From a virus: 24,940 bases of DNA. Below, in pieces: positions 12,618 to 19,380 of the stretch (the first letter of the stretch is position 1; each line of letters opens with the position of its first letter). The stretch spans positions 88,534 through 113,473 of the IMG/VR virus record IMGVR_UViG_3300043811_000163. One strand, written 5' to 3'. The position numbers were made by a program, and so were the translations under genes. Below the pieces are notes generated by a model. That model did no database searches. It was not told the origin of the DNA and was given only the letters and a program-made list of their open reading frames with translations.

Positions 12618-12695
12618 GGGGCTCGAAAGAGCATGGTGCTCAAGCGGACTGTAACCCCGCGGCTTCGGCGAGCTGTTCGATTCAGCCGGGCCCCA
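12618..12695 (+). tRNA. tRNA-Tyr (GTA)
   Basis: The acceptor GGGGCTC pairs with GGGCCCC. The anticodon loop is CTGTAAC. A short extra arm with a TTCG loop fits a class II tRNA, and the T-loop is TTCGATT. No CCA is encoded. Confidence 0.9.
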
Positions 12696-12708
12696 CTGGA
12701 GAGAGACG

Positions 12709-12786
12709 ATGGAACGCAGACTCAAACGCAAGCGCGCGCCGAGCAAGCCGGCGCAGAAATCGAGGGCCCGAAGCTCAATGGGATGA
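12709..12786 (+). CDS. Possible 25-residue basic peptide
   Basis: A frame with a good ribosome site (GGAGAGAG) encodes a very Lys/Arg-rich peptide beginning MERRLKRKRAPSK. It overlaps the tRNA-Lys gene that follows, so it may be chance. Confidence 0.2.
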   Translation: MERRLKRKRAPSKPAQKSRARSSMG

Positions 12787-12836
12787 GCAGCGGATTTTTA
12801 TCCCGCGCGACGTCGGTTCGAATCCGACCGGGCTCA
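12764..12836 (+). tRNA. tRNA-Lys (TTT)
   Basis: The acceptor GGGCCCG pairs with CGGGCTC with one G-T pair. The anticodon loop is TTTTTAT. The T arm CGGTTCGAATCCG is canonical. Confidence 0.9.
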
Positions 12837-12843
12837 CGACTAC

Positions 12844-12914
12844 GAATCCGTAGTTCAACGGCAGAACGGTCGGCCCTTACCCGATTCATGAGCGTTCGAT
12901 TCGCTCCGGATTCA
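12844..12914 (+). tRNA. tRNA-Lys (CTT), C33
   Basis: The acceptor GAATCCG pairs perfectly with CGGATTC. The D arm is GTTC/GAAC, and the anticodon stem GTCGG/CCGAT encloses the loop CCCTTAC. Position 33 is C instead of the near-universal U. The T-loop is TTCGATT. Confidence 0.88.
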
Positions 12915-12915
12915 C

Positions 12916-12986
12916 TGGCGCTTCGTCCAACGGTAGGACAGCGGTTTCTGACACCGTCAATCAGCGTTCGATTCGCTGAGCGCCAA
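12916..12986 (+). tRNA. tRNA-Gln (CTG)
   Basis: The acceptor TGGCGCT pairs perfectly with AGCGCCA. The anticodon loop is TTCTGAC and the T-loop TTCGATT. A second Gln tRNA (TTG) lies at 19051. Confidence 0.92.
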
Positions 12987-13091
12987 CCGCGGCATCCGTT
13001 TCGGTGCCACGATCCTTGACAACCCCGAGCGATGCACTCGGACCGAACGAGCATGACGGCGACCCGAACGGGCGCGGCGGTCTCCTCGTGT
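12987..13091 (+). other. Gap in the tRNA cluster without a clear gene
   Basis: No tRNA fold or convincing frame is visible. It contains an exact TTGACA (13016-13021), but no acceptable -10 box lies 16-18 bases downstream. Confidence 0.4.
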
Positions 13092-13124
13092 GACGCGGCG
13101 CGGGGTAGTTGACCGCGTCTTTTT
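13092..13124 (+). terminator. Rho-independent terminator
   Basis: GACGCGG (13092-13098) pairs with CCGCGTC (13113-13119) and is followed at once by TTTTT (13120-13124). This is the clearest intrinsic terminator in the window. It lies between tRNA-Gln and tRNA-Asn, so the tRNA cluster may be split into separate transcripts. Confidence 0.65.
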
Positions 13125-13194
13125 CCGGTGGCGCCTAATGGTGGGCACTCGGTTGTTGCCCGAGACTAAAGGAGTTCGATTCTCTTCGCCGGAG
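13124..13194 (+). tRNA. tRNA-Asn (GTT)
   Basis: The acceptor TCCGGTG pairs with CGCCGGA. The anticodon stem CTCGG/CCGAG encloses the loop TTGTTGC. The T-loop is TTCGATT. Confidence 0.92.
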
Positions 13195-13198
13195 CGGA

Positions 13199-13210
13199 TA
13201 CAATGTAGCG
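13199..13210 (+). promoter_or_regulatory. Possible -10 box for leaderless HNH mRNA
   Basis: TACAAT (13199-13204) lies six bases before the ATG of the HNH gene. If it is a -10 box, transcription would begin at or next to the start codon, giving a leaderless mRNA. No ribosome site is present. The -35 match is weak (TTCGAT, inside tRNA-Asn). Confidence 0.3.
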
Positions 13211-13603
13211 ATGAAGAACGGTCCGTACGAGCTAGTGAAAGCGCCTGCGGAATACCCTGGCTTCAAGTACCGCGGCAGGTACGTGTACGAGCATCATCTC
13301 GTATGGTGGCAGAACACGGGCGAGGTAGTTCCGACCGACGCAGACTACCTGATCCACCACAAGAATCACGATCGAAGGGACAACGCGTTCTCGAATCTCG
13401 AGAAAAAGCAACGCGGTGCTCATACGCGAGAACACATTCTTGAATCGAGAGCGGCCAAGACAGTGGTCGTTCAGTGTGGCTGGTGCAGCCGCGACGTCGT
13501 GAAGTTTGAGCGTGTCGTGCGTCGCCAACAGAAACGAGGTCAGAGAGTATTTTTCTGTTGCGCTTCACACGGGACCAAGTATCAGTTCAACGGTCCGAGA
13601 TAA
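13211..13603 (+). CDS. HNH homing endonuclease
   Basis: This is a 130-residue HNH nuclease of the kind found as free-standing homing enzymes in phages. The nuclease motif runs YVYEHHLVWW, then YLIHHKNHDRRDNAFSNLE, giving the His-Asn-His metal site at about residues 28-65. The C-terminal part has a CGWC pair and FFCCASH, likely a zinc ribbon that binds DNA. It sits between tRNA-Asn and tRNA-Thr, ending directly before tRNA-Thr. Such enzymes cut a cognate site and spread by repair, so it may mark an insertion into the tRNA array. Confidence 0.85.
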   Translation: MKNGPYELVKAPAEYPGFKYRGRYVYEHHLVWWQNTGEVVPTDADYLIHHKNHDRRDNAFSNLEKKQRGAHTREHILESRAAKTVVVQCGWCSRDVVKFERVVRRQQKRGQRVFFCCASHGTKYQFNGPR

Positions 13604-13672
13604 GCTGGATCGCGTCCGGGACCAACGCTGTTTCGTACTCAGCGCAGGGGAGTCCGACTCTCCCATCCAGCT
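13604..13672 (+). tRNA. tRNA-Thr (CGT)
   Basis: The acceptor GCTGGAT pairs perfectly with ATCCAGC, beginning the base after the HNH stop. The anticodon loop is TTCGTAC, closed by a T-T mismatch. The D arm is very short (GTCC-GG-GAC). The T arm GGGAG/CTCCC has loop TCCGACT. Confidence 0.85.
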
Positions 13673-13717
13673 CTGACCCATGCCCGCCCACGTGGCGAGC
13701 CGAAAAGGAGAACGAAA

Positions 13718-18770: not shown

Positions 18771-18771
18771 C

Positions 18772-18857
18772 GGAAGCAAAACAGGTCAGGGTGCCTGGAC
18801 CGCCTGCTAAGCGGCTCGCACGCGTGAGCGTGTCTGTTTCGATTACAGTTGCTTCCG
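18772..18857 (+). tRNA. tRNA-Ser (GCT)
   Basis: The acceptor GGAAGCA pairs perfectly with TGCTTCC, with G73. The anticodon stem CCGC/GCGG encloses CTGCTAA. A long extra arm is present (CGCAC with GCGTG). The T arm is CTGT-TTCGATT-ACAG. Confidence 0.9.
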
Positions 18858-18869
18858 CCCAAAATCCTC

Positions 18870-18898
18870 TTGCACTCGCTCGCGCCGCGCGCTAGGCT
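18870..18898 (+). promoter_or_regulatory. Candidate promoter for the last tRNA group
   Basis: TTGCAC (18870-18875), exactly 17 bases, then TAGGCT (18893-18898). It lies in the only clear gap of the late tRNA cluster and points to tRNA-Leu (CAA). The following 75 bases before the tRNA hold no gene. Confidence 0.5.
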
Positions 18899-18937
18899 CT
18901 CCTCCGTGAGCCGACTTCTGTTGCTCCAACGCCTGCA

Positions 18938-18966
18938 GCTTCTAGGGCCTTTAGCCTAAGAAGCTC
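18938..18966 (+). other. Leader hairpin before tRNA-Leu (CAA)
   Basis: AGCTTC+TAGG (18938-18947) pairs with CCTA+GAAGCT (18956-18966) with a single bulged A, ten pairs in all. No T-run follows, so a 5' leader or processing structure is more likely than a terminator. Confidence 0.4.
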
Positions 18967-18973
18967 GATCTGC

Positions 18974-19049
18974 GCGCTGGTAGACCAACTCGGAAGGAGT
19001 CGATCGCCTCAAGAGCGATTCAGTGCGGGTTCGAATCCCGCCCAGCGCA
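18974..19049 (+). tRNA. tRNA-Leu (CAA), short variable loop
   Basis: The acceptor GCGCTGG pairs perfectly with CCAGCGC, with A73. The anticodon stem ATCGC/GCGAT encloses CTCAAGA. The variable loop is only five bases, unlike normal bacterial tRNA-Leu with a long extra arm. The T arm is GCGGG-TTCGAAT-CCCGC. Confidence 0.88.
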
Positions 19050-19050
19050 C

Positions 19051-19122
19051 TCGGGGATCGATCTAACGGCAAGACATCCGGCTTTGACCCGGACAATAGC
19101 GGTTCGAATCCGCTTCCCCGAA
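19051..19122 (+). tRNA. tRNA-Gln (TTG)
   Basis: The acceptor TCGGGGA pairs perfectly with TCCCCGA. The anticodon stem TCCGG/CCGGA encloses CTTTGAC. The T arm is AGCGG-TTCGAAT-CCGCT. Confidence 0.93.
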
Positions 19123-19123
19123 C

Positions 19124-19205
19124 GCCGGCATGGTGGAAATGGCATACCCCTGCTTGAGGTGCAGGGCCCCGCAAGGGGTTGCAGGTTCGATTCCTGTTGC
19201 CGGTA
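19124..19205 (+). tRNA. tRNA-Leu (GAG)
   Basis: The acceptor GCCGGCA pairs with TGCCGGT (G1-T72). The anticodon stem CCTGC/GCAGG encloses TTGAGGT. The long extra arm CCCC-GCAA-GGGG is present. The T-loop is TTCGATT. Confidence 0.92.
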
Positions 19206-19211
19206 CGAGAT

Positions 19212-19294
19212 GCTCACCTGGCGAAATAGCAACCGCGCTGCGTTCAGACCGCAGTGGGCGCAAGCCCTTGAGGGTGCAATTCCCTCGGTGAGTA
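19212..19294 (+). tRNA. tRNA-Leu (CAG)
   Basis: The acceptor GCTCACC pairs with GGTGAGT. The anticodon stem CTGCG/CGCAG encloses TTCAGAC. The extra arm is GGGC-GCAA-GCCC. The T-loop is TGCAATT. Confidence 0.92.
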
Positions 19295-19304
19295 CCAGTT
19301 CAAC

Positions 19305-19380
19305 GCAGCACTCGCTCAACAGGCAGAAGCCCCGCCCTAAACGCGGTCAAGTCCCGGTTCGACTCCGGGGTGCTGCACCA
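19305..19380 (+). tRNA. tRNA-Leu (TAA), short variable loop, C33
   Basis: The acceptor GCAGCAC pairs perfectly with GTGCTGC, and CCA is encoded after A73. The anticodon stem CCGC/GCGG encloses CCTAAAC, so position 33 is C. The variable loop is short, without the usual long arm of tRNA-Leu. The T arm is CCCGG-TTCGACT-CCGGG. The 3' half is overlapped by the end of a gene on the other strand. Confidence 0.85.

What the first reader, a model, noticed from the sequence alone, without database searches (positions are those of the whole stretch)
12618..19380. 38 tRNAs covering all 20 amino acids, including an initiator tRNA
I could fold tRNAs for every amino acid, with isoacceptors placed side by side (Lys TTT/CTT, Glu CTC/TTC, Thr GGT/TGT, Arg TCT/GCG/TCG, four Ser, Leu groups) and an initiator tRNA with C1-A72. 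Few phages carry a complete set. This suggests the phage can keep translation going when host tRNAs are cut or degraded.
Basis: seen in the sequence. Interest (0 to 1): 0.85.

Follow-up and report, generated by a model that had tools for sequence, protein, structure and literature searches.

The report
Phage tRNA array with Ro60 module
This phage carries its own near-complete set of 38 transfer RNAs, and inside that set sits a gene for the RNA-quality-control protein Ro60 next to a partner RNA built like a tRNA whose anticodon loop has been replaced by a Ro60-docking arm, a rearranged form of the known bacterial Y RNA.

Summary
There are 38 in-register tRNA genes at 12618-19380, all 20 amino acids and an initiator with C1·A72 (30 by ARAGORN default, 8 by relaxed search). 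Completeness rests on two atypical genes: Asp without a T-loop consensus, Ala with a 6-nt T-loop. They decode 55 of 61 sense codons. Complete phage sets are known, so this part is a new member of a known kind.

It holds a full Ro60 orthologue (TROVE + vWA) and, after it, a 137-nt tRNA-like RNA (15530-15666) whose anticodon loop is replaced by a Ro60-binding Y-RNA arm. In 35 copies, 97% of cells pair and 23 of 26 pairs change on both sides. The RNA is the circular permutant of canonical YrlA: same parts, but the ends lie at the acceptor stem. Such RNAs flank Ro60 in other phages and in myxobacterial tRNA arrays; the phage array is collinear with that of Minicystis rosea (28 of 38 in order, null maximum 20).

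So this is a phage copy of a mobile tRNA-array/Ro60/Y-RNA module. Back-up tRNAs against tRNA-depleting defences is plausible but untested. I could not read Chen 2014, which may describe this topology.

The parts
12618..13195 (+). tRNA block 1: Tyr-GTA 12618-12696, Lys-TTT 12764-12837, Lys-CTT 12844-12915, Gln-CTG 12916-12988, Asn-GTT 13124-13195
   Evidence: ARAGORN; four of five above Rfam's gathering score; structural scorer
13211..13603 (+). HNH endonuclease gene (HNH_3) inside the array
   Evidence: Pfam PF13392, E 1.8e-7
13604..13673 (+). tRNA-Thr-CGT
   Evidence: relaxed ARAGORN; score 38.0 against control maximum 32.0
13718..15361 (+). Ro60/Rsr orthologue, 547 aa, TROVE + vWA domains
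   Evidence: Pfam TROVE 2.9e-49 and vWA_Ro60 8.3e-59; phmmer E 1.9e-116 to a solved Ro60 (1yvp) and 2e-111 to Rsr (2nvo)
15395..15459 (+). probable second, small Y RNA of canonical strand order, without a tRNA-like module
   Evidence: canonical-YrlA model R2, 18.4 bits, matching both ends of the Ro arm; fold -27.7 kcal/mol, z -1.8. Modest evidence
15530..15666 (+). tRNA-framed Y RNA: acceptor, D and T arms and anticodon stem of a tRNA, anticodon loop replaced by an arm of about 69 nt with the Ro60-binding core
   Evidence: Rfam tRNA 37.1 bits across the insert; model R1 90.3 bits (training member); covariation in 35 copies
15568..15634 (+). Y arm inside the above RNA: stem CGUUCUUC/GCGGAACG, CAUG-CUCGC(loop)GCGAG-CCG core, GUUACC
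   Evidence: alignment A6 compared with canonical YrlA alignment A7
15670..16257 (+). tRNA block 2: Glu-CTC 15670-15745, Glu-TTC 15747-15818, Phe-GAA 15957-16032, Pro-CGG 16031-16102, His-GTG 16108-16180, Arg-CCT 16185-16257
   Evidence: ARAGORN
16263..16335 (+). tRNA-Asp-GTC, perfect stems, T-loop GGCAGCA, G73 and CCA encoded
   Evidence: score 43.0; not found by ARAGORN
16339..16408 (+). tRNA-Trp-CCA
16412..16482 (+). tRNA-Ala-TGC, 6-nt T-loop, G3-U70 present
   Evidence: relaxed ARAGORN; sequence
16486..16862 (+). tRNA block 3: Thr-GGT 16486-16554, Thr-TGT 16560-16631, Gly-TCC 16636-16707, Gly-GCC 16712-16785, Cys-GCA 16787-16862
16988..17134 (+). tRNA-Arg-TCT 16988-17059 and tRNA-Arg-GCG 17062-17134
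17138..17210 (+). tRNA-Arg-TCG
   Evidence: score 45.0; relaxed ARAGORN
17210..17421 (+). initiator tRNA-Met (C1-A72) 17210-17280, elongator Met-CAT 17282-17351, Val-TAC 17352-17421
17421..17502 (+). tRNA-Ile-TAT with an enlarged D or variable region
   Evidence: score 36.5; Rfam tRNA-Sec model 27.1 bits, below its cut-off
17510..17659 (+). tRNA-Val-GAC 17510-17582 and tRNA-Ile-GAT 17586-17659
17682..18209 (+). HNH endonuclease gene inside the array
   Evidence: Pfam HNH, E 5e-12
18206..18511 (+). short S24-peptidase-like protein (101 aa)
   Evidence: Pfam PF00717, E 1.5e-5, 25.1 bits against cut-off 23.3
18515..18861 (+). four Ser tRNAs with long variable arms: GGA 18515-18598, TGA 18599-18682 (weak anticodon stem), CGA 18688-18771, GCT 18771-18861
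   Evidence: GCT by default, the others by relaxed search; scores 41.5 (GGA), 39.5 (CGA), 40.5 (GCT)
18974..19380 (+). tRNA block 4: Leu-CAA 18974-19050, Gln-TTG 19051-19123, Leu-GAG 19124-19206, Leu-CAG 19212-19297, Leu-TAA 19305-19380

Best explanation
A phage-borne copy of a mobile tRNA-array module with three parts: a near-complete decoding set of 38 tRNAs, a Ro60 protein, and its Y RNA in tRNA topology. SHOWN by sequence: the genes; the Y RNA's structure and covariation; its Ro60-binding core in permuted strand order; its association with Ro60; and the collinearity of the array with those of Sorangium and Minicystis. INFERRED: the array is transcribed as long precursors and cut by the host tRNA machinery. 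Because the Y RNA has tRNA ends and tRNA-like spacing to its neighbour, RNase P and the host CCA-adding enzyme would mature it together with the tRNAs. INFERRED: the tRNAs keep phage translation running when host tRNAs are cut or depleted. The Ro60/Y-RNA particle would then act as the quality-control arm, holding or delivering damaged or misfolded structured RNA, probably cleaved tRNAs, to a host nuclease such as PNPase, with the tRNA-like body as tether or decoy.
For: tRNAs. Ro60. Y RNA: A6 covariation, 97.1% of cells paired, 23 of 26 pairs with two-sided change, score 0.677 against 0.10-0.16 for slid structures, all 7 acceptor pairs covarying. Retained anticodon stem: mean 3.69 of 5 pairs against 2.46 for shuffled partners, maximum 2.94. 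Same core in canonical YrlA with swapped ends. Out-of-sample: R1 used on 57 genomes of one order gives three genomes with full-length hits; two of them were not among the loci fetched before, and in all three the hit lies next to Ro60, which only 5 of the 57 have. Collinearity: longest common order 28 of 38 with Minicystis (null mean 13.2, maximum 20), 10 of 11 and 8 of 9 with two Sorangium loci. Ro60 tree: the window groups with Sorangium, Minicystis and phage copies that also carry this RNA type. Codon coverage about 92%. D. radiodurans Rsr is tethered by Y RNA to PNPase (PMC7790460).
Against: No expression or function data. Only 19 of 38 tRNAs reach Rfam's gathering score, and a few look degenerate. 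The phage contig encodes no PNPase, CCA enzyme or RtcB that I could detect, so every downstream step needs host enzymes; the RNA-ligase search was uninformative. Most other Ro60 phages with this Y RNA have few or no tRNAs nearby, so the Ro60 RNP does not need a tRNA array. No host was identified.
Confidence: 0.62

Rival explanations
1. Only the tRNAs matter: a codon-supply or anti-defence tRNA set, with Ro60 and the Y RNA as unrelated passengers carried by HNH endonucleases.
For: Two HNH genes lie in the array, and HNH genes are known companions of tRNA arrays (PMC5966550). Many Ro60 phages lack tRNA arrays.
Against: Ro60, the Y RNA and the tRNA order are shared with Sorangium and Minicystis arrays. 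Nearly all the myxobacterial Ro60 loci examined lie in tRNA arrays.
Confidence: 0.2
2. 15530-15666 is an intron-containing tRNA whose insert is spliced out.
For: All four tRNA stems are present and the insert sits exactly in the anticodon loop; ARAGORN's intron mode calls it so.
Against: The insert is conserved as a Ro60-binding core and covaries as its own stem in 35 copies; every strong copy listed lies in a Ro60 locus; ARAGORN's 'anticodon' differs from copy to copy.
Confidence: 0.05
3. The Ro60/Y RNA is a decoy: the tRNA-shaped Y RNA lacks an anticodon, soaks up tRNA-processing or tRNA-cutting enzymes and protects the phage tRNAs.
For: [quoted passage not shown]
Against: Nothing tested here separates decoy from tether.
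Confidence: 0.2
4. The array is a decaying relic from a host chromosome, with little function.
For: Many tRNAs are divergent or atypical.
Against: Perfect stems with changed sequence, preserved order and a complete set are not expected of decay.
Confidence: 0.08

Closest known systems
tRNA array units / phage tRNA gene clusters (Morgado and Vicente)
   Same: 20 or more densely packed tRNAs, all 20 isotypes, HNH genes inside, shared between phages and bacterial chromosomes (PMC5966550, PMC6409571).
   Different: Collinear with Polyangiales arrays; contains Ro60 and a tRNA-framed Y RNA; no GOLLD or tmRNA found in the window.
YrlA, bacterial tRNA-like Y RNA (Rfam RF02553)
   Same: Ro60-binding core, GGUUAYC motif, D, T and acceptor arms of a tRNA, gene next to Ro60.
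   Different: Circularly permuted: YrlA begins and ends in the Ro stem and its acceptor stem is loop-closed; this RNA begins and ends at the acceptor stem and its Ro stem is loop-closed. Rfam's YrlA model does not detect it.
Ro60/Rsr RNPs of mycobacteriophages, Streptomyces and Gordonia phages
   Same: Phage Ro60, sometimes in or near tRNA clusters; 346 phage records with a match.
   Different: The annotated actinophages tested carry the canonical permutation, or none clearly found.
Salmonella rsr-yrlBA-rtcBA RNA-repair operon
   Same: Ro60 with Y RNAs linked to damaged tRNAs (PMC7790460).
   Different: No RtcB found in this phage contig; tRNA genes stand where repair enzymes would be.

Membership tests
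tRNA array / phage tRNA gene cluster | at least 15-20 tRNA genes at 2 or more per kb | tested here: met
   38 in 6.76 kb, 5.6 per kb
tRNA array / phage tRNA gene cluster | all 20 amino-acid isotypes (not required, but claimed) | tested here: met
   met, with Asp and Ala each resting on one atypical gene
Ro60/Rsr | TROVE (HEAT-ring) domain plus Ro60-type vWA domain | tested here: met
   full-length match to solved Ro60 and Rsr structures
Y RNA | Ro60-binding core: C(U/A)UG-N-helix / helix-CCGAAGG internal loop | tested here: met
   conserved in A6 and of the same kind in canonical A7; the window copy reads CAUG...GCCGCAUGCGG, a variant of the consensus
Y RNA | gene next to a Ro60 gene | tested here: met
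   168 nt downstream of Ro60; out-of-sample genomes likewise
YrlA (canonical) | 5' and 3' ends pair in the Ro-binding stem; acceptor arm loop-closed | tested here: not met
   ends pair in the acceptor stem, 7 of 7 covarying pairs; so YrlA-like, not a canonical YrlA
YrlA (canonical) | match to Rfam RF02553 | tested here: not met
   no RF02553 match at 15300-15700 up to E = 10
Y RNA | physical binding to Ro60 | not testable with these tools
   needs gel shift or CLIP
intron-containing tRNA | splicing restores a decoding tRNA | not testable with these tools
   the conserved Ro core argues against it

The most novel reading that the evidence does not exclude
Y RNAs exist in nature in two circular permutations of one fold. 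The tRNA-ordered one is a tRNA whose anticodon loop was replaced by a Ro60-docking arm, lives inside tRNA arrays of phages and myxobacteria, is matured by the tRNA machinery, and interconverts with canonical YrlA through tandem duplication. The array, Ro60 and this RNA form one mobile system that supplies and polices tRNAs during infection.
Probability: 0.35. Interest if true: 0.82.

Novelty: new variant of a known kind. Interest (0 to 1): 0.62.

Why it matters
Canonical bacterial Y RNAs look like tRNAs cut open at the wrong place. An unpermuted form with real tRNA ends makes the origin of Y RNAs from tRNAs directly testable. Tandem copies (L008, L036, L038, L090, L094, L109) look like the intermediates needed for circular permutation. 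It also links Ro60, known for RNA surveillance and human autoimmunity, to phage tRNA arrays and to the conflict over host tRNA cleavage.

Tried and rejected
Rfam YrlA hits inside tRNA arrays, including 12809-12867 in this window: rejected as artefacts, because the 3' half of one tRNA plus the 5' half of the next mimics the permuted YrlA. ARAGORN's 'tRNA-His with intron' at 15530: rejected as the Y RNA. Relaxed ARAGORN (-ps80) alone: not trusted, since it gave 205 hits over the contig. tRNA sequence identity as host evidence: uninformative, array tRNAs are no closer to Polyangiales than to other arrays (17 against 21); only gene order is informative. Terminase as a route to close relatives: none in IMG/VR, about 32% identity at best in annotated phages. 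Whole-window megablast against phages: no match. RNA ligase Rnl1: no hit, but the control did not ring either. An attempt to show that the Minicystis array is a prophage: its neighbours are ordinary chromosomal genes or unknown, undecided. A first Pfam test of the small gene at 18206 used the wrong frame and was repeated. Chen 2014 and the Sim/Wolin reviews, which could already describe this topology, were not held.
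Full report
WHAT WAS CHECKED. The window is bases 88534-113473 of a 113,473-base linear IMG/VR virus record. ARAGORN finds 30 tRNAs between 12618 and 19380, all on the + strand. Eight more lie in register in the gaps: Thr-CGT, Asp-GTC, Ala-TGC, Arg-TCG, Ile-TAT, Ser-GGA, Ser-TGA, Ser-CGA.

QUALITY OF THE tRNAs. A cloverleaf scorer written for this purpose gave 21 hits in the region and none on the reverse strand or in the rest of the tested window. A looser version puts 29 of the 38 above the best control score of 32.0. Only 19 of 38 reach Rfam's gathering score in at least one search, so the genes are divergent. The completeness claim leans on Asp (perfect stems, G73 and CCA, but T-loop GGCAGCA) and Ala (G3-U70 identity pair, but a 6-nt T-loop). 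Ser-TGA is the weakest. The initiator at 17210 has C1-A72. The 37 anticodons read 55 of 61 codons by strict wobble, about 92% of codons in ORFs picked by length; the gaps are CUA, three Pro codons and two Ala codons. Arg-GCG reads CGC/CGU without needing inosine (established decoding rules).

Between Thr-CGT and Glu-CTC lies a full-length Ro60 orthologue, TROVE plus vWA, with E 1.9e-116 to a solved Ro60 and 2e-111 to a solved Rsr. Downstream, 15530-15666 scores 37.1 bits as a tRNA across an unmodelled stretch of about 70 nt in the anticodon loop.

THE INSERT IS A Ro60-BINDING Y ARM. Related viral Ro60 loci also have a tRNA-like RNA with an insert of similar size beside the gene. A model built from ten such RNAs found 35 strong copies in 11 viral and 17 bacterial sources (the window's copy is one of them). 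On their alignment 97.1% of cells pair, 23 of 26 pairs change on both sides, and the covariation score is 0.677 against 0.10-0.16 when partners are slid; the alignment was fitted to the model, so the slid control matters most. All seven acceptor pairs covary, so the RNA's ends pair with each other. An anticodon-like stem is kept: 3.69 of 5 pairs, shuffled mean 2.46. The insert consensus is a stem, CUUG-NCC, a loop, GGNC-CGAAGG, the other strand of the stem, then GUUAUC.

IT IS A CIRCULAR PERMUTANT OF YrlA. Canonical YrlAs fetched here from Actinobacteria and some phages read GGGCCGGAG, stem, GGUUACC, T arm, acceptor with a short loop, D arm, stem, CAUGCCC; their model has the ends in the Ro stem and a loop-closed acceptor. 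The window's RNA has the same parts in the order acceptor, D arm, stem, CAUG core, loop, core, stem, GUUACC, T arm, acceptor. A second, small Y RNA of canonical order probably lies at 15395-15459.

DISTRIBUTION. Of 161 Ro60 rows, 31 carry the tRNA-ordered type, 76 the canonical type and 54 neither above my cut-offs; on a FastTree tree the type needs at least 8 switches. This tree is quick and has long branches, so the number is rough. Tandem tRNA-ordered copies are matched across their junctions by the canonical model (L008, L036, L090, L094, L109: 46-57 bits), and tandem canonical copies by the tRNA-ordered model (L174: 51.5 bits). Tandem duplication is therefore a ready route between the two (inference). 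As a test outside the training set, R1 was run on 57 genomes of the order of Minicystis. Only three had full-length hits, two of them in genomes not met before, and all three lie next to Ro60, which only five of the 57 have. The chance of three genomes falling among those five is about 3e-4 by hand, before counting adjacency.

A SHARED MODULE. Nearly all myxobacterial Ro60 loci examined sit in tRNA arrays, the actinobacterial ones do not. The window's tRNA order matches that of the Minicystis rosea chromosomal array at 28 of 38 positions (null mean 13.2, maximum 20 in 1000 shuffles; reversed order 11) and two Sorangium loci at 10 of 11 and 8 of 9. Other phage arrays and Kofleriaceae arrays are mostly not collinear. 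The Ro60 tree puts the window with the same Sorangium/Minicystis group. A Polyangiales host is therefore likely but not shown; tRNA sequences themselves do not discriminate.

HOW IT PROBABLY WORKS. Shown: anatomy, structure, association, collinearity. Inferred: co-transcription and tRNA-type maturation of the Y RNA, which ends a few nt before Glu-CTC, the spacing seen between tRNAs. No CCA enzyme, RtcB or PNPase was detected in the contig, so host enzymes are needed. Inferred: tRNAs as back-up against depletion (PMC10264068); the Ro60 RNP as RNA quality control through PNPase, as in D. radiodurans, or as a decoy, as suggested for YrlA (PMC7790460).

NOVELTY. Complete phage tRNA sets and arrays with HNH genes are known (PMC5966550, PMC6409571). 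Ro60 in phages is known (PMC7824862 and PMC12363180), and Y RNAs near phage Ro60 were reported by Chen et al. 2014 (abstract from memory; paper not held). The tRNA-ordered Y RNA is not recognised by Rfam as far as tested and I found no description of it, but the key papers could not be read. Hence 'new variant of a known kind'.

Noticed in passing
contig 77609-77853 (L004:17609-17853): Three tRNA-like genes outside the window with good acceptor, D and T arms and encoded CCA but abnormal anticodon arms: a loop AGAAAAA without U33, an extended arm, and a 9-nt loop. They may be non-decoding tRNA mimics.
   Followed up: partly
L167:11529-11652 (Streptomyces phage Karimac): A tRNA-like RNA with a large insert in the anticodon region (40.8 bits with R1) but without the Ro60 core, inside the tRNA cluster and unannotated.
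   Followed up: partly
15440-15530: A third CCGAAUGG...GUUACC motif between the small Y RNA and the tRNA-framed Y RNA; possibly a decayed Y RNA.
   Followed up: partly
18206-18511: A 101-aa S24-peptidase-like protein without a DNA-binding domain, inside the tRNA array.
   Followed up: partly
16862-16987: A 125-nt gap between Cys and Arg-TCT that folds unusually well (z -2.6) without being a tRNA.
   Followed up: no
L174:2660-2936 (Gordonia phage Cashline): Tandem canonical YrlAs just upstream of Ro60; the junction reads as a tRNA-ordered Y RNA.
   Followed up: partly
9112-10896: AAA ATPase of 594 aa (Pfam AAA, E 9.5e-31) upstream of the array.
   Followed up: no
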